Positions 19,000 to 59,445 of a stretch of 64,000 bases of DNA are shown piece by piece; position 1 is the first letter of the stretch; each line of letters starts with the position of its first letter. The position numbers were made by a program, and so were the translations under genes. The notes under the pieces are model-generated. The model made no database searches, was not told the origin of the DNA, and worked only from the letters and a program-made list of their open reading frames with translations. The DNA is from Streptomyces sp. NBC_01264. GTDB lineage: Bacteria; Actinomycetota; Actinomycetes; Streptomycetales; Streptomycetaceae. The stretch spans positions 5,394,001-5,458,000 of the forward strand of contig NZ_JAPEOX010000001.1 of assembly GCF_026340675.1 (NCBI RefSeq), read 5' to 3'.

Positions 19000-19595
19000 G
19001 CGCCGTACTCCTCGACGCGGTGCGCCAGCGGCTCGCCGAGAGCGGGGCGGAGCCCACCCCGGCGCGGGTGGCGGCTGCCCTGCGCGCCCAGGGCCGGCTG
19101 CTGGGCGACGCGGAAGTGCTCGGTGTGGCCGCCGAGCTGAGGTCCGAACTGGTCGGCGCGGGCCCGCTGGAGGCACTCCTCGCCGACCCCGAGGTCACCG
19201 ACGTCCTGGTGGCGGCCCCCGACCGGGTGTGGGTGGACCGCGGCGGCGGGCTGGAGCTGACCGGGGTGACCTTCGCCGACGCCGCCGCCGTGCGCAGGCT
19301 CGCCCAGCGGCTCGCCGCCGTCGCCGGGCGCAGGCTCGACGACGCCCGGCCCTGGGTGGACGCCCGGATGCCCGACGGCACCCGCCTGCACGCCGTACTG
19401 CCTCCGGTGGCCGTCGGATCGGCGTGCCTGTCCCTGCGGGTGGTCCGGCCGCGCGCCTTCACGCTGGAGGAGCTGGTCGCGGCGGGGACGCTGCCGCCCG
19501 GCGGGCAGCGGCTGCTGCGGGACATGGTGCGGGCCCGGCTGTCCTTCCTGGTCTCGGGAGGCACGGGCACCGGCAACCCGAAAACTGGGTTATAG
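18996..19595 (+). pseudogene. tadA: tadA (CpaF-type pilus ATPase), 5' half, interrupted by the prophage
   Basis: The first 193 codons encode the N-terminal domain of a TadA/CpaF secretion ATPase (GPLEALLADPEVTDVLV, then the RARLSFLVSGGTGTG entry to the P-loop). Codon 194, which should be the Walker A lysine AAG, becomes AAC by fusion to phage DNA. The frame then reads six phage codons to TAG at 19593. The lysine, Walker B and His box are all on the far side of the prophage at 59424-59993, so the truncated product cannot hydrolyse ATP. In an excised chromosome the gene would encode 382 residues. Confidence 0.95.
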
Positions 19596-19596
19596 C
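19556..19596 (+). other. attL, prophage left attachment site
   Basis: Host half GGCACGGGCACCGGC, the core AA (19575-19576), and phage half CCCGAAAACTGGGTTATAGC. The phage half is the inverted partner of the GTTCGGG arm found at attR. The host half is the Walker A coding sequence of tadA. Confidence 0.92.
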
Positions 19597-19640
19597 GCCC
19601 CTAGGTCGCGGTTGCAGAGGGTAGCCGGGCATGGGAAAGA

Positions 19641-19672
19641 CCCCGGCCGACGGGGAGAAGTGTCGGCCGGGG
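19641..19672 (-). terminator. Terminator at the left end of the prophage
   Basis: Perfect 11-bp stem CCCCGGCCGAC / GTCGGCCGGGG with a ten-base loop. It lies just beyond the last leftward phage gene, where it would stop phage transcription from reading into attL and the antisense strand of tadA. Confidence 0.8.
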
Positions 19673-19683
19673 ATAGGTGGGTC

Positions 19684-19890
19684 TTACTCAGGCTGTCGAC
19701 AGGCCTCGCACGCGACGTTCAGGGGGGCCTTGCTGCTCAGGTCCACCATCATCGTCACGCCGAATCCGTGCGGGCAGAGGCGGCGCGGGCGCCGTCCCTG
19801 CTGGCGCTGGATTCGGGTCGCGTTCAGGCCCGCCATCAACTCGCGGTACCGAGGGTCAACCCACTCGCGCGGTCCCGAGCTATCACTCAC
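19684..19890 (-). CDS. Small phage protein with a C-terminal CxxC zinc-like motif
   Basis: A 68-residue protein, MSDSSGPREWVDPRYRELMA at the start, rich in Arg in the middle. Cysteines in LCPHGFG and VACEACRQ are spaced like a small zinc-binding site. It starts at an ATG with AGGAGGTGTC upstream. It is the leftmost phage gene and is a typical short actinophage hypothetical. Function unknown. Confidence 0.7.
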   Translation of the reverse strand: MSDSSGPREWVDPRYRELMAGLNATRIQRQQGRRPRRLCPHGFGVTMMVDLSSKAPLNVACEACRQPE

Positions 19891-19929
19891 GGAGACACCT
19901 CCTGTACGGAACGCGTCGAGAGTAGCGGC

Positions 19930-20409
19930 TCAGGAGGCCGGCGGTGCGGCGCATCCGGAACCGCCACTAGTGCACTCGGAGTGCATGCAGTCCCCAGCGT
20001 GGATCTCGGTGTCTGCGAGCGGCCCCCACAGGTAGGCGTCCGGCTCGTACCCGGCCTCCCGGATGGCGTCCATCGTGCTGTCCAGGGTGTCGGCGTCCCG
20101 CCGCAGCGTCTCCGGGCCCTCGGGGCGGTGGTCCACGAACCGGCCGACCCCGCCGCACACCTCGCGGTACATCTCCGTGTGCAGGATCAGGGCATGCCAG
20201 CCCATGTCGACGGTCTTGGACGGGCGCAGGTGCCGCCCCGTAGAAGTGGCCGCGGCGGCCACGAACTTCAGGGCCTCGTCGACGATCCGCGCGGCGAGTG
20301 CCTCGTCGATGCCGTCGTTGTCGCGCTGTACGAGGTGCGTGACGCGGGTGAATCCCTCCTCGGTCAGGAGGTGCTGGGCGGAAGCGCTCAGGGCGGTCGG
20401 GGTTGCCAT
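19930..20409 (-). CDS. Glycine-rich-domain-protein-like (DUF1399-like) hypothetical
   Basis: A 159-residue protein. The segment KTVDMGWHALILHTEMYREV resembles the conserved 'WHxHIL...Y' core of DUF1399/glycine-rich domain proteins. The last 20 residues are rich in Cys, Ser and Gly (CMHSECTSGGSGCA). GGAAGGG precedes the ATG at 20409. Homologous small genes are common in Streptomyces chromosomes and phages without a known function. It lies with its neighbours near attL, a usual place for cargo. Confidence 0.65.
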   Translation of the reverse strand: MATPTALSASAQHLLTEEGFTRVTHLVQRDNDGIDEALAARIVDEALKFVAAAATSTGRHLRPSKTVDMGWHALILHTEMYREVCGGVGRFVDHRPEGPETLRRDADTLDSTMDAIREAGYEPDAYLWGPLADTEIHAGDCMHSECTSGGSGCAAPPAS

Positions 20410-20487
20410 GATGGTGGCCCTTCCAATCGAGGATGCGGCCCGCCCCGGTCACCGGAAGGGGGGACGATCGGGTGCCGGGGCGGGAGT

Positions 20488-20571
20488 TCAGTGGGCAGTG
20501 CCGATGGCGATCGCGGCGAAGATGCAGAGCACGATCACCACGTACAGGAGCTGCCGCAGGCGCTCGGTCAC
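20488..20571 (-). CDS. 27-residue single-span membrane peptide
   Basis: A GTG start at 20571 overlaps the stop codon of the upstream gene (GTGA, 20568-20571), so translation is coupled. The product MTERLRQLLYVVIVLCIFAA plus seven more residues is a basic turn followed by one hydrophobic helix. Nothing else is encoded in this frame. Such short spans occur as holin-like, toxin-like or regulatory membrane peptides; no role can be assigned. Confidence 0.6.
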   Translation of the reverse strand: MTERLRQLLYVVIVLCIFAAIAIGTAH

Positions 20572-20894
20572 TGGGCGCCTGACGGCTGCGGCTCGCCGAG
20601 CGTGGAAGCCATGGCTCGGATAATGCGGGCGAGGCCGCGGGCGTGGTTCCAGTTGGCGTGATCGCCGTGGCCCAGCGGGCCCGATTCGACGAAGTAGGCC
20701 CACTCGGTGAGGGCGGCGCCCGCGCGCTCGGTGCGCTGGGCCGCAGGGATCTGGTTCACCTGAGCGTGGAGCTTGTTCCCGGCGGTGATCAGGTCGTCGA
20801 CCAGGTGCGCCACGCCCTCGGCGTCCGGCCGCTGGTCGTAGGACGCCAGGGCCCGCGCCGCGAGCTCTTCAATCGTCTGGGTCTCGCCGGTCAT
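20568..20894 (-). CDS. Small acidic hypothetical protein (DUF6415-like)
   Basis: A 108-residue, mostly helical protein beginning MTGETQTIEELAARALASYD. Its pattern (LHAQVNQIP, then a second helix with LARIIRAMAST) resembles the small DUF6415 proteins abundant in Streptomyces, though I am not certain of the family. It is coupled to the membrane peptide that follows. The start at 20894 is an ATG preceded by GGGAGCACC. Confidence 0.65.
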   Translation of the reverse strand: MTGETQTIEELAARALASYDQRPDAEGVAHLVDDLITAGNKLHAQVNQIPAAQRTERAGAALTEWAYFVESGPLGHGDHANWNHARGLARIIRAMASTLGEPQPSGAQ

Positions 20895-21013
20895 ACCGGT
20901 GCTCCCTACCGTCGTCAGCGGGTGGTGTGACGAGCCTAGATATTCGGCCGGACGCCTCGAAGTGACCCGCAGTACGGGTACTTTGGAGGCCGCTCGCAGG
21001 CAAAGGGGGCACC

Positions 21014-22129
21014 ATGCCCATCAACGCGAATCCCACCCTGACCGCCAGTCAGGGAACACGGCAGCGAAGCCGCACCGGCATCGTCTCCGGCTACGTCTTC
21101 CGCCTCATCCGGGAGCAGCTCGGCCACACCCAGGAGTCACTCGCAGAGGCGTTCAGCGTGTCCACGGACACGGTTGCTGGCTGGGAGTCCGGCCGCCGAC
21201 CGCTTACGTCGCTGGCCGTCGGGCAGATGCTGTTCCACCGGCACCGGCTCATGCAGATGGGCATCAGCCCGACACTGCTCCTCGCCCTCGACAAGGCCTT
21301 GGAGGCCGACGTCCTCCTGGCGAGCGCGCTCGAGGATGACGGACCCACGAGCAAGAGCCCTATCGGCGCGTGGGTCATGCAGCGCGACCTGGTCGAGGTG
21401 TTGGCCTGGCCCCTGAACGGGGTGACCCCAGAACCGATGCGCACCCTCCAGCCCCCGGCTCGCCCGCGCCGCGGCCCGGCGCCCACCGGGCCGGAACTTG
21501 CTCCGGGGGATCGGCGCCGGTTCTTCCATCGCATGCGGCGCACAGCCGAGGAAGCACGTGGCGGGCCCTTCCTCCTTCGGCGCCAAGCCCTCTACCTCGC
21601 CGGATACGACGACGCGGCAGACACCTCCGAATGGCTTGCCCAGCAGCAGAAGGCTGAGCGCCCAGGTGACTGGCTGACCCAGTGGCTCAACGCGCGGTCA
21701 GTCGCTGCAGTTGCCGCCCGGCAGGGGGACCGCGACCGAATGAATCATTTCATCACGACCGCCCTTGAGGACGACGACGCCGGCGAGACCGCGAACCTCA
21801 GCTACTGGGCCTACTGGATCGGGGAGTCACCACACCTTCAGCTCGCCGATGACTTCATCGCAGACCCGACAGCCCGGACGTGGCACGGGCACAAGCTCCT
21901 TCAGCACCTCGTGACCGGGCTTTCTCCGGAGCAGGGGTTCTTCGACTTGAACGTGCACACCCTGTGGGCGCTTCTCGCTGCCAGGCCCAACCTCCTTCGG
22001 GCGCAGTCCAGTCCAGGCCGTGCTCTCCGGGATCGGTTGACCGTGCTGTTGGATGTCACCGAGCCCTCGACGCGCGCGCGGCGCGAGCTGGAGGGAATCC
22101 GGTACGCCATCCGCCTCGCCGAGGCGTGA
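21014..22129 (+). CDS. XRE-family HTH regulator with large C-terminal domain (cargo pair, gene 1)
   Basis: A 371-residue protein. The HTH lies at about residues 28-60 ([35 protein letters not shown]). The remaining 300 residues are helical, TPR-like in feel, with [20 protein letters not shown] and [28 protein letters not shown] precedes ATG 21014. It runs opposite to the phage late genes and is followed 14 bases later by an HD-domain gene. This regulator-plus-enzyme layout is a recurring Streptomyces pair and here looks like a lysogenic cargo module. Confidence 0.82.
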
Positions 22130-22143
22130 GAAGGAGAACAGAC

Positions 22144-22722: not shown

Positions 22723-22737
22723 TCCCGGACGCACGAA

Positions 22738-22776
22738 AGCGCCCCCTCCCAGCCCGAAGGCCGGAGAGGGGGCGCT
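22738..22776. terminator. Bidirectional terminator between cargo pair and tail fibre
   Basis: Perfect 11-bp stem AGCGCCCCCTC / GAGGGGGCGCT. It lies between two convergent genes (HD stop at 22722, fibre stop at 22790) and would isolate the cargo transcript from the late operon. Confidence 0.85.
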
Positions 22777-22789
22777 GTGCTGTGCGGGG

Positions 22790-25045: not shown

Positions 25046-25055
25046 GACGGCCTCC

Positions 25056-26108: not shown

Positions 26109-26117
26109 GGTGGCCTC

Positions 26118-27029
26118 CTAGTTGGTGGTGGGGGCGACGGTCACGGTGACCTTGAGGGTGCCGTCAGCGAGGGCCTGGCGGACCTCGCCGGGCGTCATCT
26201 TGGCGTCGCTGATGGCCGTCATGAGCTGTGCCTGGAACACGTCCTGCCAGACCAGCCACCAGAACGCCGCCTTCTTGGTGCCGTCCCGGCTGCCGTCCGG
26301 GCGGACGTTCGGAAGCTGGTGCTCCCACACCGCGGCTGCGATCTCCTGGGCTGTGGGCATGTCGTCCTCCTCGGACGGGTCGGGGGTCTCGCCGTGGGCG
26401 TATTCGAGGACGCGCGCGAAGTTGATGTTGCCGGGGTCGCCGTGGTCGTTCTCCGGCACGTGCTGGTGGCCGAGCCAGCCGTAGTAGGCGCCCCACTGCG
26501 CGCCCGACAGGCGGACACCGTTGGCACCGTAGGAGCCGCCGGTCTGGCCCTTCTTGTAGGCCTTCCACGTCACCGTGGACTCCAGGCGGATGCCGTGCTG
26601 GTCATGCGCCCACCGCACGATCCGGGCCAGCTCGGCAAGGAGCCAGTCCGGGGCGTCCGGCCAGAAGATGTAGTCGACGCCAGCGCGTTCGCCGTCCCAC
26701 GAGCCGGCGTTCCGCTCGTCGCAGGTGCCCACGAGTTCGAACTGCACGGCGTTCGCGGTGTTTGTCTCGACCCCTCCAGCGAGGTTGACGAGCGCGCGGC
26801 TGGAGACGTCGAAGTCGTAGTGCTGGTAGACACGTAGCTTCCGGGCGGGGATGTCCGGCAGCAGCGTGAAGTTCGGGGCGTCCCGGCCACCGCGGTAGTC
26901 GGGGACGGTGCGGCCCTCGGTGGTGTGGAGGACGCCGACGTTCGACTCCATGGCGTTGCCCGGCCAGGCGTCCTGGAACCAGTAGGTGAGCGAGGCGCCG
27001 GGGTACTTCTGCGGTCCGGTCTTGGCCAT
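26118..27029 (-). CDS. Endolysin: N-acetylmuramoyl-L-alanine amidase
   Basis: A 303-residue lysin with an Amidase_2/PGRP-type domain at residues 5-200. Zinc ligand His35 is in GVLHTTEGR and later ligands are in GHQHVPENDHGDPG. It cleaves the amide between MurNAc and L-Ala. The C-terminal 80 residues (from DDMPTAQEIAAAVW) form a helical domain common in Streptomyces phage lysins and of unknown binding target. No signal peptide is visible, consistent with holin-dependent release. Confidence 0.9.
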   Translation of the reverse strand: MAKTGPQKYPGASLTYWFQDAWPGNAMESNVGVLHTTEGRTVPDYRGGRDAPNFTLLPDIPARKLRVYQHYDFDVSSRALVNLAGGVETNTANAVQFELVGTCDERNAGSWDGERAGVDYIFWPDAPDWLLAELARIVRWAHDQHGIRLESTVTWKAYKKGQTGGSYGANGVRLSGAQWGAYYGWLGHQHVPENDHGDPGNINFARVLEYAHGETPDPSEEDDMPTAQEIAAAVWEHQLPNVRPDGSRDGTKKAAFWWLVWQDVFQAQLMTAISDAKMTPGEVRQALADGTLKVTVTVAPTTN

Positions 27030-31441: not shown

Positions 31442-33769
31442 CTATTGGCCGTATGCGGTCTGCACGGAGCCCTGGCCGACGACGCGGACGGACTTGCGCA
31501 TGAGCTTTGTGAGGTCGCTCTCTGCACCGGTGAAATCGAAGATCACACGCACCGCCTGTGGTCCGTACCCGGGCCGGGTCAGCGGCGCCGCGCCCGCACC
31601 ACGGGCGAGTTGCTGTCCGGCGAGCACGGACTGGCCGGCGCTTGGGGTGGGGACGAGGGTGGCCATCGCATCGGCGACGTCGCCTTGCCGTGCCTCGATT
31701 CCAACGACGACCCCGGCCGGGATCCACTGGCCGAGCTCGGCCATCACCTTCGACGGCGACGCGATGCCGAGGGCTTTCGCGATCGGGCCGGGGATGAGGT
31801 TGCGGGCCCAGCCGATGAGGGTGGAGCGGAGCCAGCCGCCCATGGACTGGATGCCGCGCCACAGTCCGGAGACGACGTCGCGGCCCTTGTCGGTAAGCAG
31901 GTTCCCGAGGTTGCCGATCCCGGCGGAGATCATGCCGGGCAGACCACGGACCCAGTTGACCATCGCGGTGCCGCCGTTGATGGCGCCCTGTTTGATCGTG
32001 GCCCAGTGCTTGATCATCAGGCCGATCGGGGTGAAGTTGAGGAACGCGTTGTAGATCATCCCAGGCACGCTCATCAGCCAGCCGACGATCGCGTTCCACG
32101 CGGTGATCGCGCCCTGCTTGATCGTGTCCCAGTGCTGCCAGATGATCCCGCCCAGCGTCCACGTCAGGAAGAAGTTCCAGATCTGGTCGACGGCCCACTT
32201 GATGCCGCCCCAGACCGCGTTCCACGCGGCGACCGTGGCCGCCTTGATCTGGTCCCAGTAGGTATAGATCAGTGCGGCCAGCGCGATGACCCCGAGGATG
32301 ATCCAGCCAATCGGGCCCATCGCGATCAGCCACTGCGCCGCCATCGTCGCCGCCCACACCACAGCCCGCGCCGCCATCATCACGAACTGGCCGACCGCGA
32401 CGAGACCGGCCCGTACAACGGCAGCGACCCACGTGCCGATGGAGGTGAGCGCCGAGCCCAGCCATGCAGCGGACGTGGTCGCCGCGGAGACGACCGCGGC
32501 TCCGGCGATCCGGGCGTACATGCCGAGCCCGATCGCGTTCATCCGCAGCCAGTTCCCGATCACGGTCCAGCACGACGCGGAGATGATCGCGTGAGCACCG
32601 GCCACGACAGCGGACACGGCGGAGTACACCATCATCGCGCCCTTGACCACGAGCACCGTCGCGGCCAGAGCGAGGAAGGTGAGGACCAGGGGCTTGACGA
32701 CGGTCTGGTGTTTCATGGCCCAGCCGACGACGGCGCCGCCCACCTCGGTGAGCTCGCCGATCGCCTTGCGCTTGAACGTCTCCAGCTGCGAGGCGGCCGA
32801 GCCGCCCACGGTGTCGACCATGCGGTCGGCGGCACCGGTTGCCTTGTCCATGCCGGACGCCGCTGCTGCGGTGGCCGGGTCGAGCGCGAACAGCGCGGCG
32901 CCAAGGACGTTGCCCGGGTCACCGAACAGGGCGGCCGCCGCGTTCAGCTTGACCTGCTCATCCTTCGTCCCGCGCATCTTGTCCATGGTGAGCTGCAGCG
33001 CTTTCTCCGCCTGCTCTCCACCGGCACCGATCATCTTCGCCATCGTCTTCGAGCTCAGCCCGATCGACTTGAACGCATCGTCGACCGGCTTCCCGCCAGC
33101 GAGCGCACGCTCACCGAATTGTCCGAGCGCATCGGCAACCTGGTCCGCGTCCCGGGCGCCGGCCTTCAGTCCCTGGGAGAGCAGCCCCGTTGCGGTCTGC
33201 GCGTCGAGCCCGATGCGCCTCCACTGAGTCGAGTACTCGTTGAGCGTTTCGAGGTAGTCGCCGCTCTTATCGGCCGAGGACTGCAGTCCGGCGGTGATGA
33301 TGTCGAAGGCTTCGTCTGCGTCCTTCGCCAGGCCTGTCCGCAGCAGCTGGCCGACCGCAGCGGTGGCCATCGTCAGGTCCTGGTCGAAGGTGTCGGCCAG
33401 CGCGAGGGCCTTGGTGGTGATGCCCTCCAGTCCGCCCTTCGCCTTGCTCACGTCCCCGATGTTCTGGTACACGCCCTTGATCGCAAGGTTCACGGTCTCG
33501 GTGCTGTCGCCCCACGCGTTCTGGTAGACGCTCGCCGAGACCTTCGCCATCGAGGCCGCCTGCTCGGGGCCGAGCGCCAGCTGTGCCGCAAGCTTGGCGT
33601 TCGCGGCGCCCACGTCGAGCGCGCTCGTGATGCCGACAGCGAGTGCCCCCGCTACGCCAGCTCCGATCGCCGCGGACGCGGTCGTGACCCGCTCGCCGAA
33701 CTTGCTGATCTCGCCGGACGCCCGGTCACGCGCGATCAGGTTGAAGACGAGCGAGGTATCGGAGGCCAC
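31442..33769 (-). CDS. Tail tape measure protein
   Basis: A 775-residue protein. It opens with SLVFNLIARDRASGEISKFG, a typical tape-measure start, then helical regions, a membrane-inserting hydrophobic centre at about 350-520 (LVLTFLALAATVLVVKG and similar), and Trp-containing near-repeats (IGLMIKHWATIKQGAI, LGGIIWQHWDTIKQGAI). Its length sets tail length; 775 residues suggests a tail of about 110-120 nm. It starts at GTG 33769, directly after the tail chaperone pair. Confidence 0.93.
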   Translation of the reverse strand: MASDTSLVFNLIARDRASGEISKFGERVTTASAAIGAGVAGALAVGITSALDVGAANAKLAAQLALGPEQAASMAKVSASVYQNAWGDSTETVNLAIKGVYQNIGDVSKAKGGLEGITTKALALADTFDQDLTMATAAVGQLLRTGLAKDADEAFDIITAGLQSSADKSGDYLETLNEYSTQWRRIGLDAQTATGLLSQGLKAGARDADQVADALGQFGERALAGGKPVDDAFKSIGLSSKTMAKMIGAGGEQAEKALQLTMDKMRGTKDEQVKLNAAAALFGDPGNVLGAALFALDPATAAAASGMDKATGAADRMVDTVGGSAASQLETFKRKAIGELTEVGGAVVGWAMKHQTVVKPLVLTFLALAATVLVVKGAMMVYSAVSAVVAGAHAIISASCWTVIGNWLRMNAIGLGMYARIAGAAVVSAATTSAAWLGSALTSIGTWVAAVVRAGLVAVGQFVMMAARAVVWAATMAAQWLIAMGPIGWIILGVIALAALIYTYWDQIKAATVAAWNAVWGGIKWAVDQIWNFFLTWTLGGIIWQHWDTIKQGAITAWNAIVGWLMSVPGMIYNAFLNFTPIGLMIKHWATIKQGAINGGTAMVNWVRGLPGMISAGIGNLGNLLTDKGRDVVSGLWRGIQSMGGWLRSTLIGWARNLIPGPIAKALGIASPSKVMAELGQWIPAGVVVGIEARQGDVADAMATLVPTPSAGQSVLAGQQLARGAGAAPLTRPGYGPQAVRVIFDFTGAESDLTKLMRKSVRVVGQGSVQTAYGQ

Positions 33770-35263: not shown

Positions 35264-35998
35264 TCACCTGATTCCGAAGCTGGTGGCGAACATGAACGAG
35301 GGGGTGGTGCCGGTGATCGTCCACGCGACCCGGAACCAGTCGTCGGTGATGGCGGACCCGATCGTCCGCAGCGCCTCGCCCCCGGCCGCGTTGGCCGCGG
35401 TGAACGTGAGCTGCGTGGTGGCCGACGGGAAACCGACCGCGTTGTCGGACTCGATCCGCGCGGTGATGCTCGGGGTGGTACCGGCCACGGACAGAACGTG
35501 GAGCGCGGCGTACAGCCGCTTGCCCGCGGGGATCGCGCCCAGCTGCACGGCGGTACCGACGCCGGTCGAGGTGCGTGCGGTACCGGCCGGGTGGGCCATC
35601 TGCCCGCGGACGAGCGGCCAGGACGAGGCGCCCTTTCCGGTCCACGGGGCGACGTCGCCGATCGAGCCGCCGAGCGCGTAGCTCGCGGTCATGCACTGGG
35701 TGATGTAGGCGAGGTCACCGACGGCCGCGTTGTCGGGGCACGCGGTCCACGGGCCGACGCCGCCGAGCCGGGCCCACATTGCGTCGTCGACCTTGCTGGA
35801 GTCGGCTGCTTCCCACTGTCCCTCGCCCGCGACCTCGGCCGAGCCGAGCCCGCCGATCACTTCCTTGTACCCGGCGGACAGGTAGTTGGTGGTCTCCTTG
35901 TCCTCGACCTCCGCCGTCAGCTCGATCTTGTTCGAGGCGCCGGTCAGGTCCGCGCCGACGGCGAACAGTCGGGCGTTGAGCAGGACGAACTTGCTCAC
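35264..35998 (-). CDS. Tail tube protein paralogue (long form)
   Basis: A 244-residue protein paralogous to the gene that follows it, but with about 100 more residues of beta-rich sequence at the C-terminus (IPAGKRLYAALHVLSVAGTT and beyond). The insertion may be a surface Ig- or lectin-like module. GTG 35998 follows GGAGCTGACCC. Which of the two paralogues is the main tube subunit cannot be decided from sequence alone. Confidence 0.75.
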   Translation of the reverse strand: MSKFVLLNARLFAVGADLTGASNKIELTAEVEDKETTNYLSAGYKEVIGGLGSAEVAGEGQWEAADSSKVDDAMWARLGGVGPWTACPDNAAVGDLAYITQCMTASYALGGSIGDVAPWTGKGASSWPLVRGQMAHPAGTARTSTGVGTAVQLGAIPAGKRLYAALHVLSVAGTTPSITARIESDNAVGFPSATTQLTFTAANAAGGEALRTIGSAITDDWFRVAWTITGTTPSFMFATSFGIR

Positions 35999-37817: not shown

Positions 37818-39083
37818 TTAGGCGGTGCCGCCGGTGAACGTCTTGATGGCGCCGGTCAGGTCGACGAGCGCCGCGTCCGCGCGCATCAGCGCCCGGAAGG
37901 TGACGAGGTCGTTGCCGAAGGCGAACTCGTCGGACCGCTCGAACCTGATGCCACCGGCAAGGCGGACGAAGTACTGGCTGAAGTCGCCGAACGCGACCGA
38001 CTCGGCAGAGGCGGCGATGGCCGGCATGTTCGGGTCGGTCAGGACCGGCTTGCCGAGGATGGTGTCCGGCTGACCGGCGATCACGGACGGCTGCCAGATG
38101 TACTGACCTTCGCTGGTCTTGATCTTCCGGACGGCGCCCGCGGTGCTGTCGGCCATGAGCCAGCGGCACGACCCGGACATCCGGTACGGGGAGATCACCG
38201 AGTGGAACAGGGTGATAAGCAGATCCGCGCCCTGGCCCGCCGTGGCCTGTACACCGAAGCCACCGACCGGGGTCGCAGCGTTCGGGCCGGTCGCCCCGGC
38301 GGACGCGTCGGTCAGGATGCCGCGCGGCTTGGACGATCCGTCACCCGTGATGGCGTGCGCGCCGAACGCGTTGCCCAGGGCGCGGCCAGCCTGCATGGCG
38401 AGGTAGCCCTCCAGGTCGACGCCCGTGTCGGTGAGGAGCTCACGCGAGACCTGGATCAGGGTGCCGTACTTGTACGCGCCGAGGCTGACCTGCCCGAACG
38501 CCGGGTCGGACTCGCCGATGGATCCTGCCTCGGTGACGATCGCGGCACTGGAGTGCGCGGTCGTCTTGGGGACCTGGATGACCTCGCCGCTCGCGGTGTT
38601 CAGGACGGTGGCCCCGGCCTGAAGGATCGCGGACGTTTCGATGAGGTGCGCGACGAGCCGGTCGTAGAACGACGTCGGGACGATCGCGCCGCCCGCGCCC
38701 GAGCTCAGCTTGGACAGGTCACGGAAGTTCACCGGACCGGAGGGGTTCACGTCGATGGACCGCGGGCCCTCACCGCGCAGGAAGTTCCGGAGCGCGACGT
38801 CGCCGCCGTCCGGTCCGCCCTGGCCGCCAGTGCCGCCCTGCTTGCGGGGCTCCCCGCGCAGCGAGGACATGGCGTCCTCGGCATCCTTCGCGCGCTGCTC
38901 ACCGTCGAGCACCGCCTTGATACGGACATCGAGCGCGTCGAGCTCGGAGTTCAGCGAGACCCACGTCTTCTCCTCCTCGCTGGAGAACTGGCGGTTCTCG
39001 TCGGCCGCGCGGTCCGCCAACTCCTTGGCCTGCTCCCACACATTGAGGCGCCGGTCGCGCAGCTTCTTGGCAACTTCGGACAT
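37818..39083 (-). CDS. Major capsid protein, HK97 fold
   Basis: A 421-residue capsid precursor. Residues 1-100 are a helical scaffold-like delta domain (KELADRAADENRQFSSEEEK) that the protease would remove. The mature part begins around residues 115-140 and has typical HK97-family features (AIVPTSFYDRLVAHLIETSA; AFGAHAITGDGSSKPRGIL; RFERSDEFAFGNDLVTFRAL). ATG 39083 follows GGGAGTAAGACC. The protease is encoded upstream, as usual. Confidence 0.94.
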   Translation of the reverse strand: MSEVAKKLRDRRLNVWEQAKELADRAADENRQFSSEEEKTWVSLNSELDALDVRIKAVLDGEQRAKDAEDAMSSLRGEPRKQGGTGGQGGPDGGDVALRNFLRGEGPRSIDVNPSGPVNFRDLSKLSSGAGGAIVPTSFYDRLVAHLIETSAILQAGATVLNTASGEVIQVPKTTAHSSAAIVTEAGSIGESDPAFGQVSLGAYKYGTLIQVSRELLTDTGVDLEGYLAMQAGRALGNAFGAHAITGDGSSKPRGILTDASAGATGPNAATPVGGFGVQATAGQGADLLITLFHSVISPYRMSGSCRWLMADSTAGAVRKIKTSEGQYIWQPSVIAGQPDTILGKPVLTDPNMPAIAASAESVAFGDFSQYFVRLAGGIRFERSDEFAFGNDLVTFRALMRADAALVDLTGAIKTFTGGTA

Positions 39084-39291
39084 GGTCTTACTCCCGTCGG
39101 GGTGTAGCTGAACGGGAGCCCACGACGCCCCGCACCGATCGGTGCCAGTGGCCGGCGCGTGCTGCAACCGGCGGTCGTCTGATCACTGCTCCGTGCTGCA
39201 CGTGCCGACGGGGTTTCCAATCGGCAGGCCCGGCCGGATGCCGGGCCCCCGCCGCTAGGCGGGCGTACCTCATGCTGTGATTCCCCCGCGC

Positions 39292-39973: not shown

Positions 39974-41251
39974 TCACTCGGATGGGGTGGTACCGCCCGC
40001 AGGGTCTGCGTCGGGCTGTGCTTGCACGGCGGCCAGGAGAGCCACCGGCAGGTAGTCCTCGCCGTGCTGCCCGGCAGGCAGCGGCGAGAGGTCTTCGATC
40101 GCGCGGACTTCGTCGCGGTTGCGCCAGCCGTCCTGGAGCGCAATGCGGTGCGCCTCGTACCGGGTGCGCAGATCGACGCGGATCATCGCGTCAACGTTGA
40201 AGCGGACGAACTCCTTGCCCGGCATGAGCGCGGACAGCTTGGCTTCCAGCCGGGCGAGCCACGGCCGCAGGGTGAAGCCCACGAAGTTGATCGCGTTCTG
40301 CTCGACATTGGCATACGTCATCGAACCACCGGAGTCGCCGCCGACCATCTCCGGCGGGACGCCGTAGATCGCGGCGATCTGGCTCGCGTTGAGCCTCATG
40401 GTCTGGATGAACTGCGACTCTTCCGGGCTGACCTTCAGCGCCTCGAAGTCCCAGTCCGAGCCGAGCACCAGCGGCTTGCGCGCGCGGACCCTGGCGGACA
40501 GACGGTCGCTGATCTCAGCCGACTCGTCCGGGGTGATCGTCTTCGCCGAGTTCTTCAGGACGCTCGGCGGGGTGCCGCCGTTGTCGAACCAGGACAGCCC
40601 GTACTCAGTGGCGGACAGGCCGACGCCGATGGTCTGCGCGAAGTAGCTGACCGGCGACAGGCCCACGACCTTGCCAGGCATGACCACCCACGGAATGTGG
40701 ATGATCTGCTCGCGCGGTACCTCGATGCCCTGCCAGTAGTAGACCGGCAGGGTCGGCCGCAGCTCGTCCACCCACACGTCGTCGGGGTTCAGCCACTCGA
40801 TCATCGTTGGGAACCCGAAGTCGTCCCGCTGCGTGATCAGCCCGTAGGCGTTGCCGCGCAGCGCCATGGAAACCACGCACTTGTGGAGCCACTCGAACAG
40901 GTTGTCCCGCGCGGCCGGCGCGAACAGCAGCGACGGCACGAACGTGAGCATCTCCCGCGACGCGCCGTTCTTCCGGTACGTCTGCACCGGCAGCGACGCG
41001 ATCGAGTCCGCGAGGATCCGCACGCACGCGAACAGCGGGATGAGCTGGAGCGCGCGGGCCGCGGCCGTCGACTGCGACGAAGTGCCGCCCCCGCCGAGCC
41101 ACGGCAGCGAGGTGATGGCCCGCTTGCTGACGCCACCCATCCACCTGAACGGCGCGGCCAGCGCGCGGCCCATCCGGCGCCAGCCACCAGGCTCCGACGG
41201 CGGGGCGCCGCCCGGGTACCACACCCCATCGCGGCCAAGAGTCGGGCCCAT
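39974..41251 (-). CDS. Portal protein (HK97 family)
   Basis: A 425-residue portal. Recognisable stretches are LIPLFACVRILADSIASLPV, MALRGNAYGLI, HIPWVVMPGKVVGLSPVSYF and IAAIYGVPPEMVGG. The dodecameric portal forms the DNA entry channel at one capsid vertex and docks with the terminase. ATG 41251 follows GAGGAGGGATCTAC. It lies 12 bases after the terminase large-subunit stop. Confidence 0.94.
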   Translation of the reverse strand: MGPTLGRDGVWYPGGAPPSEPGGWRRMGRALAAPFRWMGGVSKRAITSLPWLGGGGTSSQSTAAARALQLIPLFACVRILADSIASLPVQTYRKNGASREMLTFVPSLLFAPAARDNLFEWLHKCVVSMALRGNAYGLITQRDDFGFPTMIEWLNPDDVWVDELRPTLPVYYWQGIEVPREQIIHIPWVVMPGKVVGLSPVSYFAQTIGVGLSATEYGLSWFDNGGTPPSVLKNSAKTITPDESAEISDRLSARVRARKPLVLGSDWDFEALKVSPEESQFIQTMRLNASQIAAIYGVPPEMVGGDSGGSMTYANVEQNAINFVGFTLRPWLARLEAKLSALMPGKEFVRFNVDAMIRVDLRTRYEAHRIALQDGWRNRDEVRAIEDLSPLPAGQHGEDYLPVALLAAVQAQPDADPAGGTTPSE

Positions 41252-41263: not shown

Positions 41264-42808
41264 TCACAGCACCGAGTTCATGACGTCGTAGTCGTCGCGG
41301 ACCAACGGCCCGCGGGTGAGCAGCGCCCACCGCGCCTGGACTGCTGCGACGAGCGGGGATACGTCGGCCAGGGACTTGCGCCGGTCGAGCACCCACGCAT
41401 CGCCGACCGGCCGGGTCATCGCCCCATTCACAGCAGCGGTCAGCGGGGCCTGGTCGATATGGCGGACAGTGCCCTGTGTCATGGCGTCGGCCATCTGCCC
41501 GGACGCCTCGACCATGTCGCCGGTCCTCATCACCACCAGGTGACCCGGGAGCGGGTGGTCCTTCTCGTCGCCTTCCGGCACCCGTACCCCCGCCGCGACG
41601 AGGTCGTCGATGAGGGACGAGGACGGTGAGCCGGTGGCAGATATGGCCACGGCCACCGGGTCGTGAAGCTGCCGCAGCCGCACGACCGCGGGCACCACCC
41701 ACTCCGTGCCAGCTCGGCGGTCGATGACCTCCAAGTGCACGTGGCCGTCGGACCGCAGTCCGGCCATCGCGATCGTCGACGTGCTTCGGTCCTGCGACAC
41801 CTCGACCGCGAGGGCAAGTTCGGCGCCCGGCCGGGACCGCTCGTCGGCCAGCCCGGGCCAGTGCTGCTTGGGAACGTTCGCGTCCGACGGCGGCGCCGCC
41901 TTCCGCGTGCGGTTCAAGTAGGCACGATCGAATTCAGCAGGATCGAGTTTCTCCAGCTCGGCCCTGATGATGTCCTCCGACACCGTGTGTCCCAACGCTG
42001 GCAGCGCGGTACGCCACGTGGACGCTTGGTCGCGCGGCAGATGGTCGGGAGCGAACCACTCGAAGTACGCAACACGGGGCTGGTGGCCGGTCGCCCACAT
42101 CTGCTGGATCAACTCGCGCCCAGCCTCACGCTTCTTGTTCAGCCAGACGCTGCGGTCCGTGCCGCCGGCGCTGGCCCACCAGAGCTGGGCCATCGGCTTG
42201 GTCAGCATGGCCGGAGAGAACGCCTGCTCAAGCCTGTCGTCCTCGGCGGCGAACGCCTCGTCGATGATGCCGAGATCCAAGGGCGGCCCGTGGCCAGCCT
42301 TCTCGGTGTTCGAGGTGATGCCGAGTAGGGATCGCGTGCTGCCCCAGATGATGGCCTCGTTGCCGGTGGTCTTCCGGGGTCGGTACTTGCCGAACAGCGA
42401 GGAGCCGTCGAGGGTGGCGAGGAACTCGTCCTCCCACCGTTTCTTGGCCATCGTCCGGTTCTGCGCGGCATAGGTCACGTTCTGCCGCTCCCACGCCATG
42501 ATCCGGTGGACCATCACGGCCAGGATCTGCTGGGTCTTCCCCTGCTGGCGCGGAACGCTGAGCCCTACCTCGCGGTGCGCGAACACGCCCGTGTCCGGGT
42601 CCAGCTCCAACGCCACGTCGAGGACGTACCGCTGCCAGGGCATGGGCTCGAAGCCGAGCTTCCGCATGACCTTGGCCGCCTTGCCGCCGAGCGTCGGGTA
42701 GTCGAGGCGCCGAGGGGTTCCCCACCAGGGCGCGCACTCCAATCCGTACAGCTCCCGCAGCTGGTCGCCAAACTCAGTCGGGGCTGTCCAGATCGGAGAG
42801 GTCGTCAT
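41264..42808 (-). CDS. Terminase large subunit
   Basis: A 514-residue packaging motor. The ATPase domain has Walker A SVPRQQGKTQQ near residues 92-102 and Walker B LGIIDEAF near 178-185. A nuclease domain follows, with ALAVEVSQDRST as its first acidic motif. ATG 42808 lies within the 3' end of the small-subunit gene (35-base overlap). Together with the HNH gene upstream, this is the arrangement of cos-type HK97-like packaging. Confidence 0.93.
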   Translation of the reverse strand: MTTSPIWTAPTEFGDQLRELYGLECAPWWGTPRRLDYPTLGGKAAKVMRKLGFEPMPWQRYVLDVALELDPDTGVFAHREVGLSVPRQQGKTQQILAVMVHRIMAWERQNVTYAAQNRTMAKKRWEDEFLATLDGSSLFGKYRPRKTTGNEAIIWGSTRSLLGITSNTEKAGHGPPLDLGIIDEAFAAEDDRLEQAFSPAMLTKPMAQLWWASAGGTDRSVWLNKKREAGRELIQQMWATGHQPRVAYFEWFAPDHLPRDQASTWRTALPALGHTVSEDIIRAELEKLDPAEFDRAYLNRTRKAAPPSDANVPKQHWPGLADERSRPGAELALAVEVSQDRSTSTIAMAGLRSDGHVHLEVIDRRAGTEWVVPAVVRLRQLHDPVAVAISATGSPSSSLIDDLVAAGVRVPEGDEKDHPLPGHLVVMRTGDMVEASGQMADAMTQGTVRHIDQAPLTAAVNGAMTRPVGDAWVLDRRKSLADVSPLVAAVQARWALLTRGPLVRDDYDVMNSVL

Positions 42809-43019
42809 CGTCGTCCTCCGCCGGCCGCCCATCGACGAGCTGCTTCAGCGTGGCCCGCAGCTCCTTGTTCAGCGCGGGCATCAGCCGCCCGTCGTCACCC
42901 CCGCCCGCGTCCATGTCGGCCGCCAGGCGGTACGCCATCTCGGCGAGCGTGGGCTCGACACCGGCCAGGCCGCCGATCGCCTCGATGTCCTCGCGGACGG
43001 CTGTCTCCACCGGACCCAT
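42774..43019 (-). CDS. Probable terminase small subunit
   Basis: An 81-residue protein, MGPVETAVREDIEAIGGLAG at its start, with helices and a very acidic tail (EDDDDDLSDLDSPD). Size and place directly before the large subunit support the call. In related phages the small subunit binds the packaging site. TGAGGAGGCCACC precedes ATG 43019. It lies just downstream of the four-palindrome array. Confidence 0.78.
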   Translation of the reverse strand: MGPVETAVREDIEAIGGLAGVEPTLAEMAYRLAADMDAGGGDDGRLMPALNKELRATLKQLVDGRPAEDDDDDLSDLDSPD

Positions 43020-50711: not shown

Positions 50712-50723
50712 TGCGATCCCTTC

Positions 50724-52328: not shown

Positions 52329-52350
52329 GGCGACCACCTCGTCATCGGAT

Positions 52351-52680: not shown

Positions 52681-52697
52681 CGCGACCGCCTGGGGGG

Positions 52698-55376: not shown

Positions 55377-55606
55377 GAACGGGGCTCCTGTGGTGCGCAG
55401 CGGGCGTGGTGGTCGGTCCGGATGGAGGCGTTGAAGGCGATGACGGCGGCCTCCCCGAATACGGGCCCCTCGGTGGTGCGACAGAGGAGGCACTCGTAGC
55501 GGGCCCGGATGCCGACCATGTCGATGAAGAGGCCGCCGGTGAGGGCCTGGCCCCGCTGGCCGAGAGCGTTGCCCTCGGCCAGCGGGGTACGGGGGGCGAC
55601 GGTCAT
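55373..55606 (-). CDS. Small zinc-knuckle-like protein
   Basis: A 77-residue protein, MTVAPRTPLAEGNALGQRGQ at its start, with YECLLCRTTEG and HHARCAPQ supplying possible zinc ligands. Both ends overlap neighbours by four bases. Function unknown. Confidence 0.68.
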   Translation of the reverse strand: MTVAPRTPLAEGNALGQRGQALTGGLFIDMVGIRARYECLLCRTTEGPVFGEAAVIAFNASIRTDHHARCAPQEPRS

Positions 55607-55797
55607 GCCGCCTCGCTGCGGTCGGCCTGCTGAAAGATTCCGCGCAGCCGGACGCGCTGGGCGGGGGTGAGCTCCGGGGCCGCGGCGACGTTGGCGTCGA
55701 TCCGCGCCCAGTAGGCGGCGTTGCGCTCCGGGTCCGGGTGCCGGACCGGCCGGCCGAGGGAACCCTCGGCCGACGCGGTCTTGGCGGTGGCGGTCAT
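55603..55797 (-). CDS. Small hypothetical phage protein
   Basis: A 64-residue protein, MTATAKTASAEGSLGRPVRH at its start; helical C-terminus (TPAQRVRLRGIFQQADRSE). Four-base overlaps at both ends. Not recognised. Confidence 0.68.
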   Translation of the reverse strand: MTATAKTASAEGSLGRPVRHPDPERNAAYWARIDANVAAAPELTPAQRVRLRGIFQQADRSEAA

Positions 55798-56773: not shown

Positions 56774-56958
56774 GCGGCGCCCTCCTGTGAGCCGACGAGC
56801 GCCTGTTCGAAGCGCTCGATCTCGGCAGCGGCGTAGAGGACCTTGCGCCCGACCTTGATGCCGACCGGTCCGTAGCCGGTGTGCCGCCAGTAGCGGACCG
56901 TGGCCGGGCTCGTCCGGTACCTCCTGGCGACTTCCACGGTCGTCAAGTACTGCTCCAC
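56770..56958 (-). CDS. Excisionase-like helix-turn-helix protein
   Basis: A 62-residue protein. EQYLTTVEVARRYRTSPATV, then RYWRHTGYGPVGIKVGRKVL, is a winged HTH of the excisionase/MerR type. GTG 56958 follows TGGAGGTTGCCG; an ATG 11 codons upstream lacks such a site. As the first leftward gene after the repressor, it may be the recombination directionality factor, or a Cro-like early regulator. Confidence 0.78.
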   Translation of the reverse strand: MEQYLTTVEVARRYRTSPATVRYWRHTGYGPVGIKVGRKVLYAAAEIERFEQALVGSQEGAA

Positions 56959-57072
56959 CGGCAACCTCCAGAGGGATGACGGGATCAACATCCCGATACT
57001 GGAGGAGCATGGTGGCCGGATCGTCGCCTGTCAACCTTTACAAGGATGCGCTCTCGGGTAGCCTTCATCCTC
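56959..57072. promoter_or_regulatory. Lysogeny switch: divergent promoters with operator-like repeats
   Basis: A 114-base region between the leftward early operon and the rightward repressor. GGGATCAACATCCC (56981-56994) is a dyad; GAGGGATGA (56971) and ATGAGGGATAA (57073) repeat its GGGAT half. For the repressor, TTTACA (57037-57042) and TAGCCT (57059-57064) form -35/-10 boxes with a 16-base spacer. Confidence 0.65.
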
Positions 57073-57879
57073 ATGAGGGATAAGCGTCAACCAACGCCAG
57101 CCAACGGAGATGCGGTGGCGCAAGCCCAGGTCTTGCCGATCGCTGATGTGCCGAGAGCTTTCGGCGCGCGGCTGCGCGCCGCGCGGCAAGAGGCTGAGTT
57201 GTCGCAGGATGGTCTGGCCAGGGCGATGGCGGCATGCGGCTTCAACTGGCGGCAGACCACGGTGGCCAAGACTGAGGCGGCAGATCGCCCTGTCCTGTTC
57301 GCTGAGGTTGTGGCGCTGTCGCGCATTCTCGAGACTGGAATTGATGAATTCCTGTCCGAGACCACTCCCTTGGATTCTCTTCTTGCGGGGATCCAGCGTT
57401 CAGCGCTGGAGAGGGGAAAGGATGTGCATAATGCTGAACAGGCCCTGCAGATCGCCCGATGGAACCTGCATAATGTCGAGGCTGGGTTGCGTCTCACGCA
57501 AGCGATCTATGCCTACCGGCGGGACTCGGACTCGGGTCCGCTAAGGGCCGATATCGAGCTGATCCTGGAGCAGTATGGCGAAGCCGTGATCAGGGCATAT
57601 GCCGTGTATGAGGCCGCCCGGATCCCGATCCCGCGAGTTGTGGATGCGGAGGCCAAGGCTTTGCAGGAGGCGGCAAGGGGGGAATTGGCAAGATTTAACC
57701 GCCTATCAGAATCGGATATGGAATCCGAGTCCGGAGAGTGGTTGCTCGCTGTCGCGAGCGCGGCTGAAGGGAATAAGCCCGTGGCCGCTATAAGGGATCA
57801 GTTGTCACTGGAAAATGGGTACCGCGTGCATCTAGCCGAACTCTTGACGGACCTTGTCGTCGAGTATGTGCACGCCTAG
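57073..57879 (+). CDS. Phage repressor, XRE family
   Basis: A 268-residue protein with an HTH at about residues 30-60 (FGARLRAARQEAELSQDGLA) and a helical C-terminal domain of about 180 residues. I choose ATG 57073 because the -10 box ends at 57064, which would place the transcript start almost on this codon, giving a leaderless message. ATG 57046 lies within the promoter. The base composition is clearly lower in GC than the neighbours, with unusual codons (AAT, GAT, AGA, TTA-free). It is the only rightward gene at this end and faces the early operon. Confidence 0.82.
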   Translation: MRDKRQPTPANGDAVAQAQVLPIADVPRAFGARLRAARQEAELSQDGLARAMAACGFNWRQTTVAKTEAADRPVLFAEVVALSRILETGIDEFLSETTPLDSLLAGIQRSALERGKDVHNAEQALQIARWNLHNVEAGLRLTQAIYAYRRDSDSGPLRADIELILEQYGEAVIRAYAVYEAARIPIPRVVDAEAKALQEAARGELARFNRLSESDMESESGEWLLAVASAAEGNKPVAAIRDQLSLENGYRVHLAELLTDLVVEYVHA

Positions 57880-59378
57880 GAACGCGCCTCCATGCCTCGC
57901 AGCCACACGAACTTGACGGCTTCGTAATCGAAGCGACCGCCGTCGGGCATGGGGCCGAGCCGCGGAGGCGTGAGCGTCACGGTGACGAGCGTGCGGAGGA
58001 CGCCGCGCTTCTCCTCGAGGGGTAGGGCGTGCCAGGCCTTGCCGACGTTCTTCGCGCCGACGAGCTTCACCAGCGGGTCCTTCACCGCGGCCCGGGCCAT
58101 CTGCTGGGTCACCCCGTCGAGCTGTGCGCGGGCTACGTCCGAGCCCTCGGTGAACTGGTTCATGTCGATCTGCCCAGACCCGAACAGGGCGGCCAGGTCG
58201 GTGAGGCGCCGGCGGATCTGTTCGCTCTCCACCTGCAGCGCGGCGACGTTCACGTCGGACGGTCCGGGCAGCAGCAGGTCGACCGCATCCTCGCGTGACA
58301 GGCGGGCGATGACCGTGTCCTGCACGTACTCGTCGACCTTCGCCGCCTGGCGGCCGCCACCGTGCGCGGTCTTGCACCGGTAGCTCGGGTAGCGCCGGCC
58401 ACCGGACTGCGTCACGTACACAGTCTCCGTGCAGTCGCCCCGCCCGCACCGGTACAGCAGGGACCCCAGCCACTTGGGCTGAGCGCCGGGCGTCGTCCGC
58501 CGGTTCGGGTCCATCAGGACCGCGACGACAGCGCGGTGCTTCTCCTCGGGGACGATCGCCGCCCAGTTCCCGGGCCCGATCTCCTCGCCTCTGTAGACGG
58601 CGATGCCGGCGTTCCTCGCGCGCATCAGCATGTCCCGGGCTTCCACGTGCCCGACTAGATTCCCGCGGGTCGTGGTCAGGCCCTTGTCGGCGAGCCACCG
58701 GCACCAGCCCTTGATGGTCCCGCCCGACAGGAGCATGTCGATGCCGACCCGGACCGCCTCGGCCTCCTCGGGGACGAGCTGGTCCATGTCGAGGACGGGC
58801 ACTTCGACCTCCTCGCCCGTCGCCCTGTCGACCTTCTTGCGCGTCTCGCCGGTGGGCAGGCCCCACCCGAACGGACGGATGCCACCGCCCCACTTTCCAG
58901 CCTGCGCCTTCTGTAGGCGGGACCGGGCGACGCGTTCGGCCTTGTGCTCCGACTCGTGCCGGGCGACCGCGCCGTGAATGCGCGCCGTCATCCGGCCCGA
59001 TGAGGTCGACAGGTCGAGGTCGCCGGCCTGCACGGTGTGGGTATCGACGCCGCGGCGCTGGCTCAGGTCGATGTACTCCTCCAGCTCGGTGGGGGAGCGG
59101 TGCAGGCGGTCGGTGTGCCAGGCGATGACGACGGTGGCGGTGCCCTGCTCCAAGTCGTCAAGCATGCGGCGGTAGTCGGGCCTCTTCTTGCCCGAGTAGG
59201 CGGAGATGTCGTTGTCGATGTAGGTCTCGACGACGTCCCACCCGCGGCTGGCTGCGAGGGCTTTGCAGTCTTCCATCTGGCGGTCGACGCCGAGGTGGGC
59301 GCCGGTGCGGTCCTGGGAGATGCGGACGTAGATGACGGCGCGGATGAGCCGGTCGGATCCGGGGCGAATGGGCTTCAT
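57876..59378 (-). CDS. int: Large serine integrase
   Basis: A 500-residue serine recombinase. The catalytic domain opens AVIYVRISQDRTGAHLGVDR with nucleophile Ser21 and continues WDVVETYIDNDISAYSGKKR and AWHTDRLHRSPTELEEYIDL. A recombinase domain and a zinc-ribbon domain follow (SLLYRCGRGDCTETVYV, SYRCKTAHG), then a coiled-coil region. It starts at ATG 59378, 46 bases from the attR core, the normal placement next to attP. Its end overlaps the repressor by four bases. It performs attP x attB integration. Confidence 0.96.
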   Translation of the reverse strand: MKPIRPGSDRLIRAVIYVRISQDRTGAHLGVDRQMEDCKALAASRGWDVVETYIDNDISAYSGKKRPDYRRMLDDLEQGTATVVIAWHTDRLHRSPTELEEYIDLSQRRGVDTHTVQAGDLDLSTSSGRMTARIHGAVARHESEHKAERVARSRLQKAQAGKWGGGIRPFGWGLPTGETRKKVDRATGEEVEVPVLDMDQLVPEEAEAVRVGIDMLLSGGTIKGWCRWLADKGLTTTRGNLVGHVEARDMLMRARNAGIAVYRGEEIGPGNWAAIVPEEKHRAVVAVLMDPNRRTTPGAQPKWLGSLLYRCGRGDCTETVYVTQSGGRRYPSYRCKTAHGGGRQAAKVDEYVQDTVIARLSREDAVDLLLPGPSDVNVAALQVESEQIRRRLTDLAALFGSGQIDMNQFTEGSDVARAQLDGVTQQMARAAVKDPLVKLVGAKNVGKAWHALPLEEKRGVLRTLVTVTLTPPRLGPMPDGGRFDYEAVKFVWLRGMEARS

Positions 59379-59404
59379 CGGCCAAGTCTGGCACCAGCGA
59401 GGTG

Positions 59405-59445
59405 TCTTAGTCTCAGGTTCGGGAAGACCACCCTGCTCAGCGCCC
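59405..59445 (+). other. attR, prophage right attachment site
   Basis: Phage half CTTAGTCTCAGGTTCGGG, the core AA (59424-59425), and host half GACCACCCTGCTCAGC. Joining the phage halves of attL and attR gives TTCGGGAACCCGAA, with six-base arms flanking AA and further partial symmetry (CTCAGGTTCGGG against CCCAGTTTTCGGG). Confidence 0.92.

What the first reader, a model, noticed from the sequence alone, without database searches (positions are those of the whole stretch)
19556..59445. Prophage inserted exactly at the Walker A lysine codon of a Tad pilus ATPase
Seen: tadA is split after codon 193; attL and attR share only AA, which are the first two bases of the Walker A lysine codon AAG. Removing 39,849 bases restores a 382-codon frame reading GTGTGKTT. 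Known: serine integrases use a 2-bp core and can favour conserved coding sites. Inference: the phage targets a sequence that the host cannot change without losing ATPase function, and the insertion is a reversible switch that removes the pilus (perhaps its own or a rival phage's receptor) during lysogeny.
Basis: partly seen in the sequence, partly recalled or inferred. Interest (0 to 1): 0.9.

Follow-up and report, generated by a model that had tools for sequence, protein, structure and literature searches.

The report
Phage inserted in pilus motor's P-loop
A 40-kb phage sits in a Streptomyces pilus-motor gene, cutting it at the codon for its key ATP-binding lysine, and related integrases and several other kinds of mobile element break the same gene in other species, so this gene is a favoured landing pad rather than a one-off.

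Summary
An apparently complete temperate phage splits tadA of a Tad-pilus operon. The shared core is AA (19575-76, 59424-25); removing 39,849 bases restores 382 codons with GTGTGKTT. Three close relatives carry the intact site.

It recurs. Of 11 other Streptomyces genomes with an integrase 61-87% identical, 10 have it at this site. An attR-pattern scan of named genomes gave 13 hits, all Streptomyces with such an integrase. Among 56 more distant loci, 12 integrases sit at Walker A of TadA, CpaF-like or ABC-transporter ATPases and 6 in comM; 38 do neither.

The same tadA is also split at codons ~240 and ~286 by other recombinases (a second serine-integrase lineage, Tn7-like elements, two tyrosine-recombinase groups): 27 of 392 genomes in all, against 0 of 392 for the TadA paralogue.

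So the target is recurrent and conserved in position. 'Reversible switch' and 'phage receptor' remain unproven; blocking Tad-dependent DNA uptake is a testable alternative, also unproven.

The parts
17755..18999 (+). tadZ-like ParA/MinD ATPase gene, upstream gene of the tad operon
   Evidence: ORF; weak ArsA/CbiA Pfam matches, E about 1e-4 and below the curated cut-offs; name is inference from position
18996..19595 (+). 5' part of tadA: 193 codons, then NPKTGL-stop read from phage DNA
   Evidence: T2SSE match in this part
19575..19576 (+). attL core AA, first two bases of the Walker-A lysine codon
   Evidence: AA at the same codon in the 9 other genomes whose N-half was read, one of them (G198) a contig that ends at the AA
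19577..59423 (.). prophage body
   Evidence: terminase, portal, tape measure, primase-polymerase, helicase; capsid, major tail
41264..42832 (-). terminase large subunit
   Evidence: phrog_9, 2e-59
39974..41251 (-). portal protein
   Evidence: phrog_12, 1e-77
37818..39167 (-). major capsid protein
   Evidence: PF05065 3e-66, phrog_10
35264..35998 (-). major tail protein
   Evidence: phrog_9522 2e-64
31442..33769 (-). tape measure protein
   Evidence: phrog_1272 4e-36
55603..55797 (-). 64-aa ORF of unknown function, matched about 2-3 kb from the integrase in all 10 related elements compared (9 at this site and G249); candidate directionality factor (inference)
   Evidence: no Pfam or PHROG match; no match in the phage collection at E 1e-3
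57046..57879 (+). HTH regulator next to the integrase
   Evidence: PF13560 5e-6
57876..59378 (-). large serine recombinase (integrase), 500 aa
   Evidence: PF00239 and PF07508
59424..59425 (+). attR core AA
59424..59993 (+). 3' part of tadA, codons 194-382 and stop
59990..60901 (+). tadB
   Evidence: T2SSF PF00482
60901..61677 (+). tadC-like ORF, 258 aa
   Evidence: name by position (inference)
61912..62127 (+). Flp pilin-like ORF with a G/MSTSEY processing site
   Evidence: DUF4244 PF14029 3e-22; translation; site motif as stated for M. luteus in PMC4322843
62066..62467 (+). tadE-like ORF (start uncertain)
   Evidence: PF07811

Best explanation
A temperate siphophage-like prophage was inserted by its large serine recombinase at a 2-bp AA core inside the DNA that codes for the Walker-A lysine of TadA. 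TadA is cut to 193 residues plus a short tail, without its ATPase core, and the downstream tad genes are parted from the upstream ones. The integrase belongs to a recombinase family in which several lineages use Walker-A coding DNA as attB: members examined here hit TadA, CpaF-like ATPases and ABC transporters; others hit comM, and most of the distant ones hit neither. In Streptomyces one clade is fixed on tadA. Independently, four other recombinase types use the same gene at codons ~240 and ~286. These steps rest on sequence. Inferred: tadA is favoured because it is near-universal in the genus yet tolerates loss, and because losing the pilus helps the integrated element. The reason I think most likely is that it closes a Tad-dependent DNA-uptake route that could replace the element with an empty allele, as proposed for comYC, comK, comFA and comM insertions.
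For: Junctions, frame and integrase. Same site in 10 of 11 relatives and in 13 of 13 named attR-pattern hits (the pattern can only find this arm type). Elements at the site differ in most structural genes while the integrase is shared. Walker-A junctions in 12 of 56 unique distant loci: 10 by script, 2 by inspection; TadA 4, CpaF-like 2, ABC 6. comM in 6 of the 56. Random positions pass the script in 3.1%. tadA split in 27 of 392 genomes by five recombinase types against 0 of 392 for the paralogue, Fisher 9e-9. Own genome has a ComEC-family protein. In Micrococcus luteus both tad clusters are needed for transformation (PMC4322843, passages).
Against: No evidence here that Streptomyces takes up DNA with this pilus. 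The ComEC family also rings in 10 of 14 control genomes, so its presence says little. Six distant relatives hit ABC transporters, which are not uptake genes. 38 of the 56 distant loci have neither target. One control gene only; species are not independent. The attB window is not unusually conserved in DNA. The integrase of G249, the nearest relative outside this clade, is not in tadA.
Confidence: 0.85

Rival explanations
1. Neutral landing pad: tadA is present in nearly all Streptomyces but dispensable, so any recombinase that happens to recognise it persists; loss of the pilus brings the element nothing.
For: Near-universal orthologue (missing in 6 of 392 genomes); integrases at ABC transporters show that Walker-A DNA alone can be the attraction; no stops in the parts of 16 split genes examined, whatever the element.
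Against: The paralogous TadA, as widespread and in this genome with a near-identical Walker A, is hit 0 times in 392; five recombinase types without clear similarity to each other converge on one gene; sister integrases switch between tadA and comM.
Confidence: 0.4
2. Receptor loss / superinfection exclusion: the Tad pilus is a phage receptor and its removal protects the lysogen (the finder's idea).
For: Fits phage insertions at the Walker-A site; pili of this type serve phages in other bacteria (recalled).
Against: tadA is also hit by elements that do not look like phages (Tn7-like, tyrosine-recombinase elements, 8-10 kb elements). Paper search found no paper with its three terms, and the 15 of 18 titles listed in one search show no such link.
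Confidence: 0.2
3. Reversible switch (active lysogeny as for comK): the phage excises to restore TadA when the pilus is needed.
For: Clean 2-bp core and restored frame; both junctions intact in 8 of 11 genomes; own tadA differs from that of G278 by 47 synonymous and 0 nonsynonymous codons, and from the codon-nearest G257 by 41 and 3; a G198 contig ends exactly at the core.
Against: attR of G321 is damaged. Genes split by other element types show no stops either, so lack of stops does not point to excision. In 13 of 16 split genes the nonsynonymous/synonymous ratio to the nearest intact gene is higher than in the intact-intact pair used for comparison, which may hint at relaxed selection. No excised form was seen.
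Confidence: 0.2
4. Assembly artefact or chimaera.
For: None found.
Against: Both halves lie on one contig, about 36-41 kb apart, in 7 of the 11 genomes; the attR side recurs in 13 named records.
Confidence: 0.01

Closest known systems
Large serine recombinases that disrupt a conserved gene (Mg-chelatase/comM-like and prolyl isomerase sites in Durrant et al. 2022, PMC10083194, passages read)
   Same: Serine integrases of different clusters sharing one conserved coding site; gene disrupted; competence genes enriched among targets
   Different: Target here is the Walker-A lysine codon of the Tad ATPase; no tadA or Walker A in the 12 passages shown; supplements not available
Prophage and island insertions into competence genes comYC, comK, comFA, comM, comEC (Croucher et al. 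2016, PMC4774983, passages read)
   Same: Recurrent, convergent insertions by different integrases into one machine; two independent sites in comFA
   Different: Tad pilus of Streptomyces, no transformation phenotype known to me; five recombinase types and three positions in one gene
Listeria comK prophage, active lysogeny (recalled)
   Same: Serine integrase; precise restoration of the frame predicted
   Different: Regulated excision not shown here
Inteins and homing endonucleases at P-loop motifs (recalled)
   Same: Parasitic DNA aimed at highly constrained codons of ATPases
   Different: They leave a working host protein; this phage splits it
Tn7-like (TniQ) and Tn554-like (recalled name, by layout) elements at tadA codons ~286 and ~240 found here
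   Same: Same target gene
   Different: Other recombinases and positions

Membership tests
Large serine recombinase | Resolvase catalytic domain plus Recombinase domain | tested here: met
   PF00239 5.1e-32, PF07508 2.2e-5, over cut-offs
Large serine recombinase | Zinc-ribbon domain | tested here: inconclusive
   No Pfam zinc-ribbon match in this integrase; matched in two of three site-286 serine integrases scanned
Large serine recombinase | 2-bp core with imperfect inverted attP arms next to the integrase gene | tested here: met
   AA core; arms 13-19 of 26 matching in 8 elements; integrase start 45 nt away
Large serine recombinase | Recombination activity on attB x attP | not testable with these tools
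   Needs a bench assay
Complete temperate tailed phage | Terminase, portal, capsid, tail and replication genes | tested here: met
Complete temperate tailed phage | Lysis genes | tested here: inconclusive
   Weak endolysin match at 26118-27029, E about 1e-5 to 1e-4
Tad/Flp pilus ATPase (TadA/CpaF, T2SSE) | T2SSE domain, Walker A, neighbours tadZ-tadB-tadC-flp-tadE | tested here: met
   PF00437 in both halves; neighbours (tadZ and tadC names inferred)
Elements that disable host transformation | Insertion into a gene of the DNA-uptake machinery | tested here: inconclusive
   Tad genes are needed in M. luteus (PMC4322843); role in Streptomyces unknown; ComEC-family protein present
Elements that disable host transformation | Loss of transformation in the lysogen | not testable with these tools
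   Bench assay needed
Active lysogeny (comK type) | Regulated precise excision restoring the gene | not testable with these tools
   Frame restoration predicted; excision not observed

The most novel reading that the evidence does not exclude
Several lineages of one phage-integrase family use Walker-A coding DNA as their attachment site and switch between ATPase genes and comM, and in Streptomyces different mobile elements have converged on tadA because breaking the Tad pilus closes a DNA-uptake route that would otherwise cure them; tadA would then mark an unrecognised natural-transformation system in Streptomyces.
Probability: 0.3. Interest if true: 0.92.

Novelty: new variant of a known kind. 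Interest (0 to 1): 0.78.

Why it matters
If the hotspot holds, it shows different mobile elements converging on one pilus motor gene in the main antibiotic-producing genus. It gives a direct test of whether Streptomyces uses its Tad pilus for DNA uptake or as a phage entry point. Integrases that read Walker-A coding DNA also form a natural series for studying how serine integrases choose and change targets.

Tried and rejected
Unusual DNA conservation of attB as the reason for targeting: not supported (rank 423 of 1107 windows; sites 240 and 286 rank 390 and 358; 35 intact genes). Splits by contig ends, frameshifts or other causes: G028, G130, G180 and G330 were not counted. No tadA orthologue was found in G008, G046, G050, G102, G152 and G338; these stay in the denominator. 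Paralogue control: pieces in G115 and G119 adjoin or overlap (frameshifts); G375 is a 55%-complete genome with frameshifts; G050, G102, G139 and G150 lack the paralogue. In some searches the match table is capped, so most genomes were judged intact from the best E-value alone; insertions near the ends of either gene could be missed. The first genome contigs and viral-contig scans by integrase peptides gave 0 loci and 1 viral contig without host flank (L041). Near-identical known phage: megablast of 24 kb of the prophage gave one 46-nt match, in two records of one phage; all 767 phage records with an integrase match are below 60%, about 33-37% in the rows listed. A comM match in L245 lies over 1 kb from its integrase and was not counted. 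'Walker A' in PMC6222049 proved to be author initials. A decayed integrase in G170 (one TAG) was not borne out over 483 matched codons. G227 carries no match to the codon-240 recombinases within the 9 kb held on each side, so it is placed by junction only.
Full report
OBSERVATION. tadA begins at 18996. The host sequence runs GGCACGGGCACCGGCAA and then turns into CCCGAAAACTGGG; at the other end ...CAGGTTCGGGAA runs into GACCACCCTG. AA is the shared core, and no common stretch of 8 nt or more exists between the two junction regions. Joining gives 382 aa with GTGTGKTT. The integrase gene (57876-59378, minus) starts 45 nt from the attR core and carries Resolvase and Recombinase domains. The insert encodes terminase, portal, tape measure, primase-polymerase and helicase, plus capsid, major tail protein and a RuvC-like resolvase; lysis genes are only weakly recognised. 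TadA is left as 193 codons followed by NPKTGL-stop. The operon continues with tadB, a tadC-like ORF, a Flp-like pilin and tadE.

SAME SITE IN OTHER STREPTOMYCES. The integrase was searched in 392 genus genomes; 253 had some serine-recombinase match at E 0.001. Besides this genome, eleven had one of 61% identity or more. In 10 of these 11 a tadA half abuts the element at this site. Exceptions within the ten: G321 has a damaged attR without the core, G198 has a variant attR arm and an N-half contig that ends at the core, and G139 has no readable N-half. In the 11th (G249) tadA is intact and the integrase lies elsewhere. A degenerate attR pattern, which can only find this arm type, was scanned over the genome-contig collection (84,980 species): 13 hits, all Streptomyces, all 13 with a 66-72% identical integrase and the tadA 3' half. 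Compared with this phage, the elements of 9 genomes (G139 and G221 fetched only in part; G198 not compared) differ in most structural genes, G321 being the closest; the integrase and a 64-aa ORF are matched in all 9 and in G249. attP arms are imperfect inverted repeats around AA in 8 elements.

HOTSPOT. TadA was searched in the same 392 genomes. Genomes whose best E-value suggested a partial match were examined one by one. tadA is split in 27 of 392. Codon 194: 11, this clade. Codon ~240: 3 (G363, G178, G227); G363 and G178 carry a tyrosine recombinase (61% identical to each other; the catalytic-domain match of G363 is below Pfam's cut-off) with two further ORFs; G227 is placed by its 3' junction only. 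Codon ~286: 13. Of these, 6 have a second serine-integrase lineage (23-30% identical to ours, 47-92% among themselves) in 8-10 kb elements. Four are Tn7-like, with ends TGTCGG...CCGACA; two TniQ and a TniB were profiled in G066, and TniB and TniQ relatives lie in the other three. Three have tyrosine recombinases in about 5 kb (two profiled in G149; first recombinases 57-74% identical among the three). Recombinases were profiled by Pfam in 8 of the 16 non-Walker-A elements, in G381 with only a weak rve match; the others are assigned by similarity, junction sequence or ORF layout. The two tyrosine groups show no convincing similarity to each other. The paralogous TadA shows 0 insertions in 392; its two partial cases in good genomes are frameshifts, and four genomes lack it. 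In this genome its Walker-A DNA is nearly the same as attB. Fisher's exact test gives 9e-9, without correction for relatedness and with one control gene.

WALKER A AS A FAMILY TRAIT. I looked at where related integrases sit, in loci from 374 genomes of the class, from 341 genomes of one other family (30 of 41 matches were fetched) and in the more distant Streptomyces loci. Of 59 loci (56 after removing 3 duplicates), a script found Walker A at the junction in 12 (10 unique), and inspection added 2 (L224, L227). That is 12 of 56: TadA 4, CpaF-like 2, ABC-transporter ATPases 6, one of these in Streptomyces. Random positions of the same loci pass the script in 725 of 23,600 trials, 3.1%. Pfam supports the two TadA 3' halves tested, one CpaF-like half, and 4 of 4 ABC genes tested; the other CpaF-like half is below cut-off, the two TadA 5' halves rest on tblastn, and two ABC genes were judged by eye. 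Six of 56 sit in comM/YifB, four by Pfam and L246 and L247 by tblastn. 38 of 56 have neither. In FastTree trees tadA, comM and ABC users interleave, so targets have been switched, but several deep nodes are weak.

CONSERVATION AND DECAY. The Lys codon is AAG in 35 of 35 intact genes, yet the 40-nt attB window ranks 423 of 1107 for conservation. This genome's tadA differs from that of G278 by 47 synonymous and 0 nonsynonymous codons, and from that of the codon-nearest G257 by 41 and 3. In the 16 of 27 split genes examined (only the 5' part for sites 240 and 286) no stop was found; in 13 of the 16 the nonsynonymous/synonymous ratio to the nearest intact gene exceeds that of the intact pair used for comparison, at unequal distances. 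So there is no gross decay for any element type examined, with a possible hint of relaxed selection; insertions are likely recent or short-lived.

MECHANISM. From sequence: a serine integrase at the Walker-A codon, loss of a full-length TadA frame, recurrence and convergence. Inferred: loss of pili, ability to excise, and the reason for choosing tadA. The passages read in PMC4322843 state that gene products of both tad clusters of Micrococcus luteus are required for competence and that tad plus ComEA/ComEC is frequent in actinobacteria. This genome has a ComEC-family protein, but so do 10 of 14 control genomes. The passages read in PMC4774983 describe phage and island insertions into comYC, comK, comFA, comM and comEC as protection from removal by transformation. 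The comM-using relatives fit that reading; the ABC-transporter ones do not need it.

LITERATURE. Searches (open-licence PMC papers only; some listings capped) showed no title or abstract start that reports insertion into tadA or at Walker A. Passages, not whole papers, were read in four papers. Durrant et al. (PMC10083194) report enrichment of serine-recombinase targets in competence genes, including a Mg-chelatase gene; the supplements were not available, so T2SSE genes may be listed there.

VERDICT.

Noticed in passing
L149, L150, L166/L167 (tadA codon ~240): Elements of about 18 kb in two genomes, with a tyrosine recombinase plus two further ORFs (layout like Tn554, recalled), inserted in tadA; a third genome has a similar 3' junction.
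   Followed up: partly
L160-L165, L187, L188 (tadA codon ~286): Tn7-like elements with TniQ and TniB relatives and, in G066, restriction-modification-like genes (ResIII, DNA methylase) use the His-box region of tadA.
   Followed up: partly
L151-L153: About 5-kb elements with tyrosine recombinases and little room for cargo, also at codon ~286 of tadA.
   Followed up: partly
L154-L159: 8-10 kb elements with a second serine-integrase lineage (23-30% identical to the prophage's) at tadA codon ~286; cargo not studied.
   Followed up: partly
window 55603-55797: 64-aa ORF conserved about 2-3 kb from the integrase in all 10 related elements compared, with no match in the phage collection; may be the directionality factor.
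   Followed up: partly
L015 / L214 (G041, Streptomyces sp. ms191): A second, inverted copy of the tadA 3' end lies just downstream of the split gene.
   Followed up: no
L229-L231, L233, L235 (another family) and L031 (Streptomyces): Related integrases sit at Walker A of ABC-transporter ATPases.
   Followed up: partly
L041: Viral contig of IMG/VR with a 91% identical integrase, cut about 15 nt before the integrase start so that its junction is not seen.
   Followed up: no
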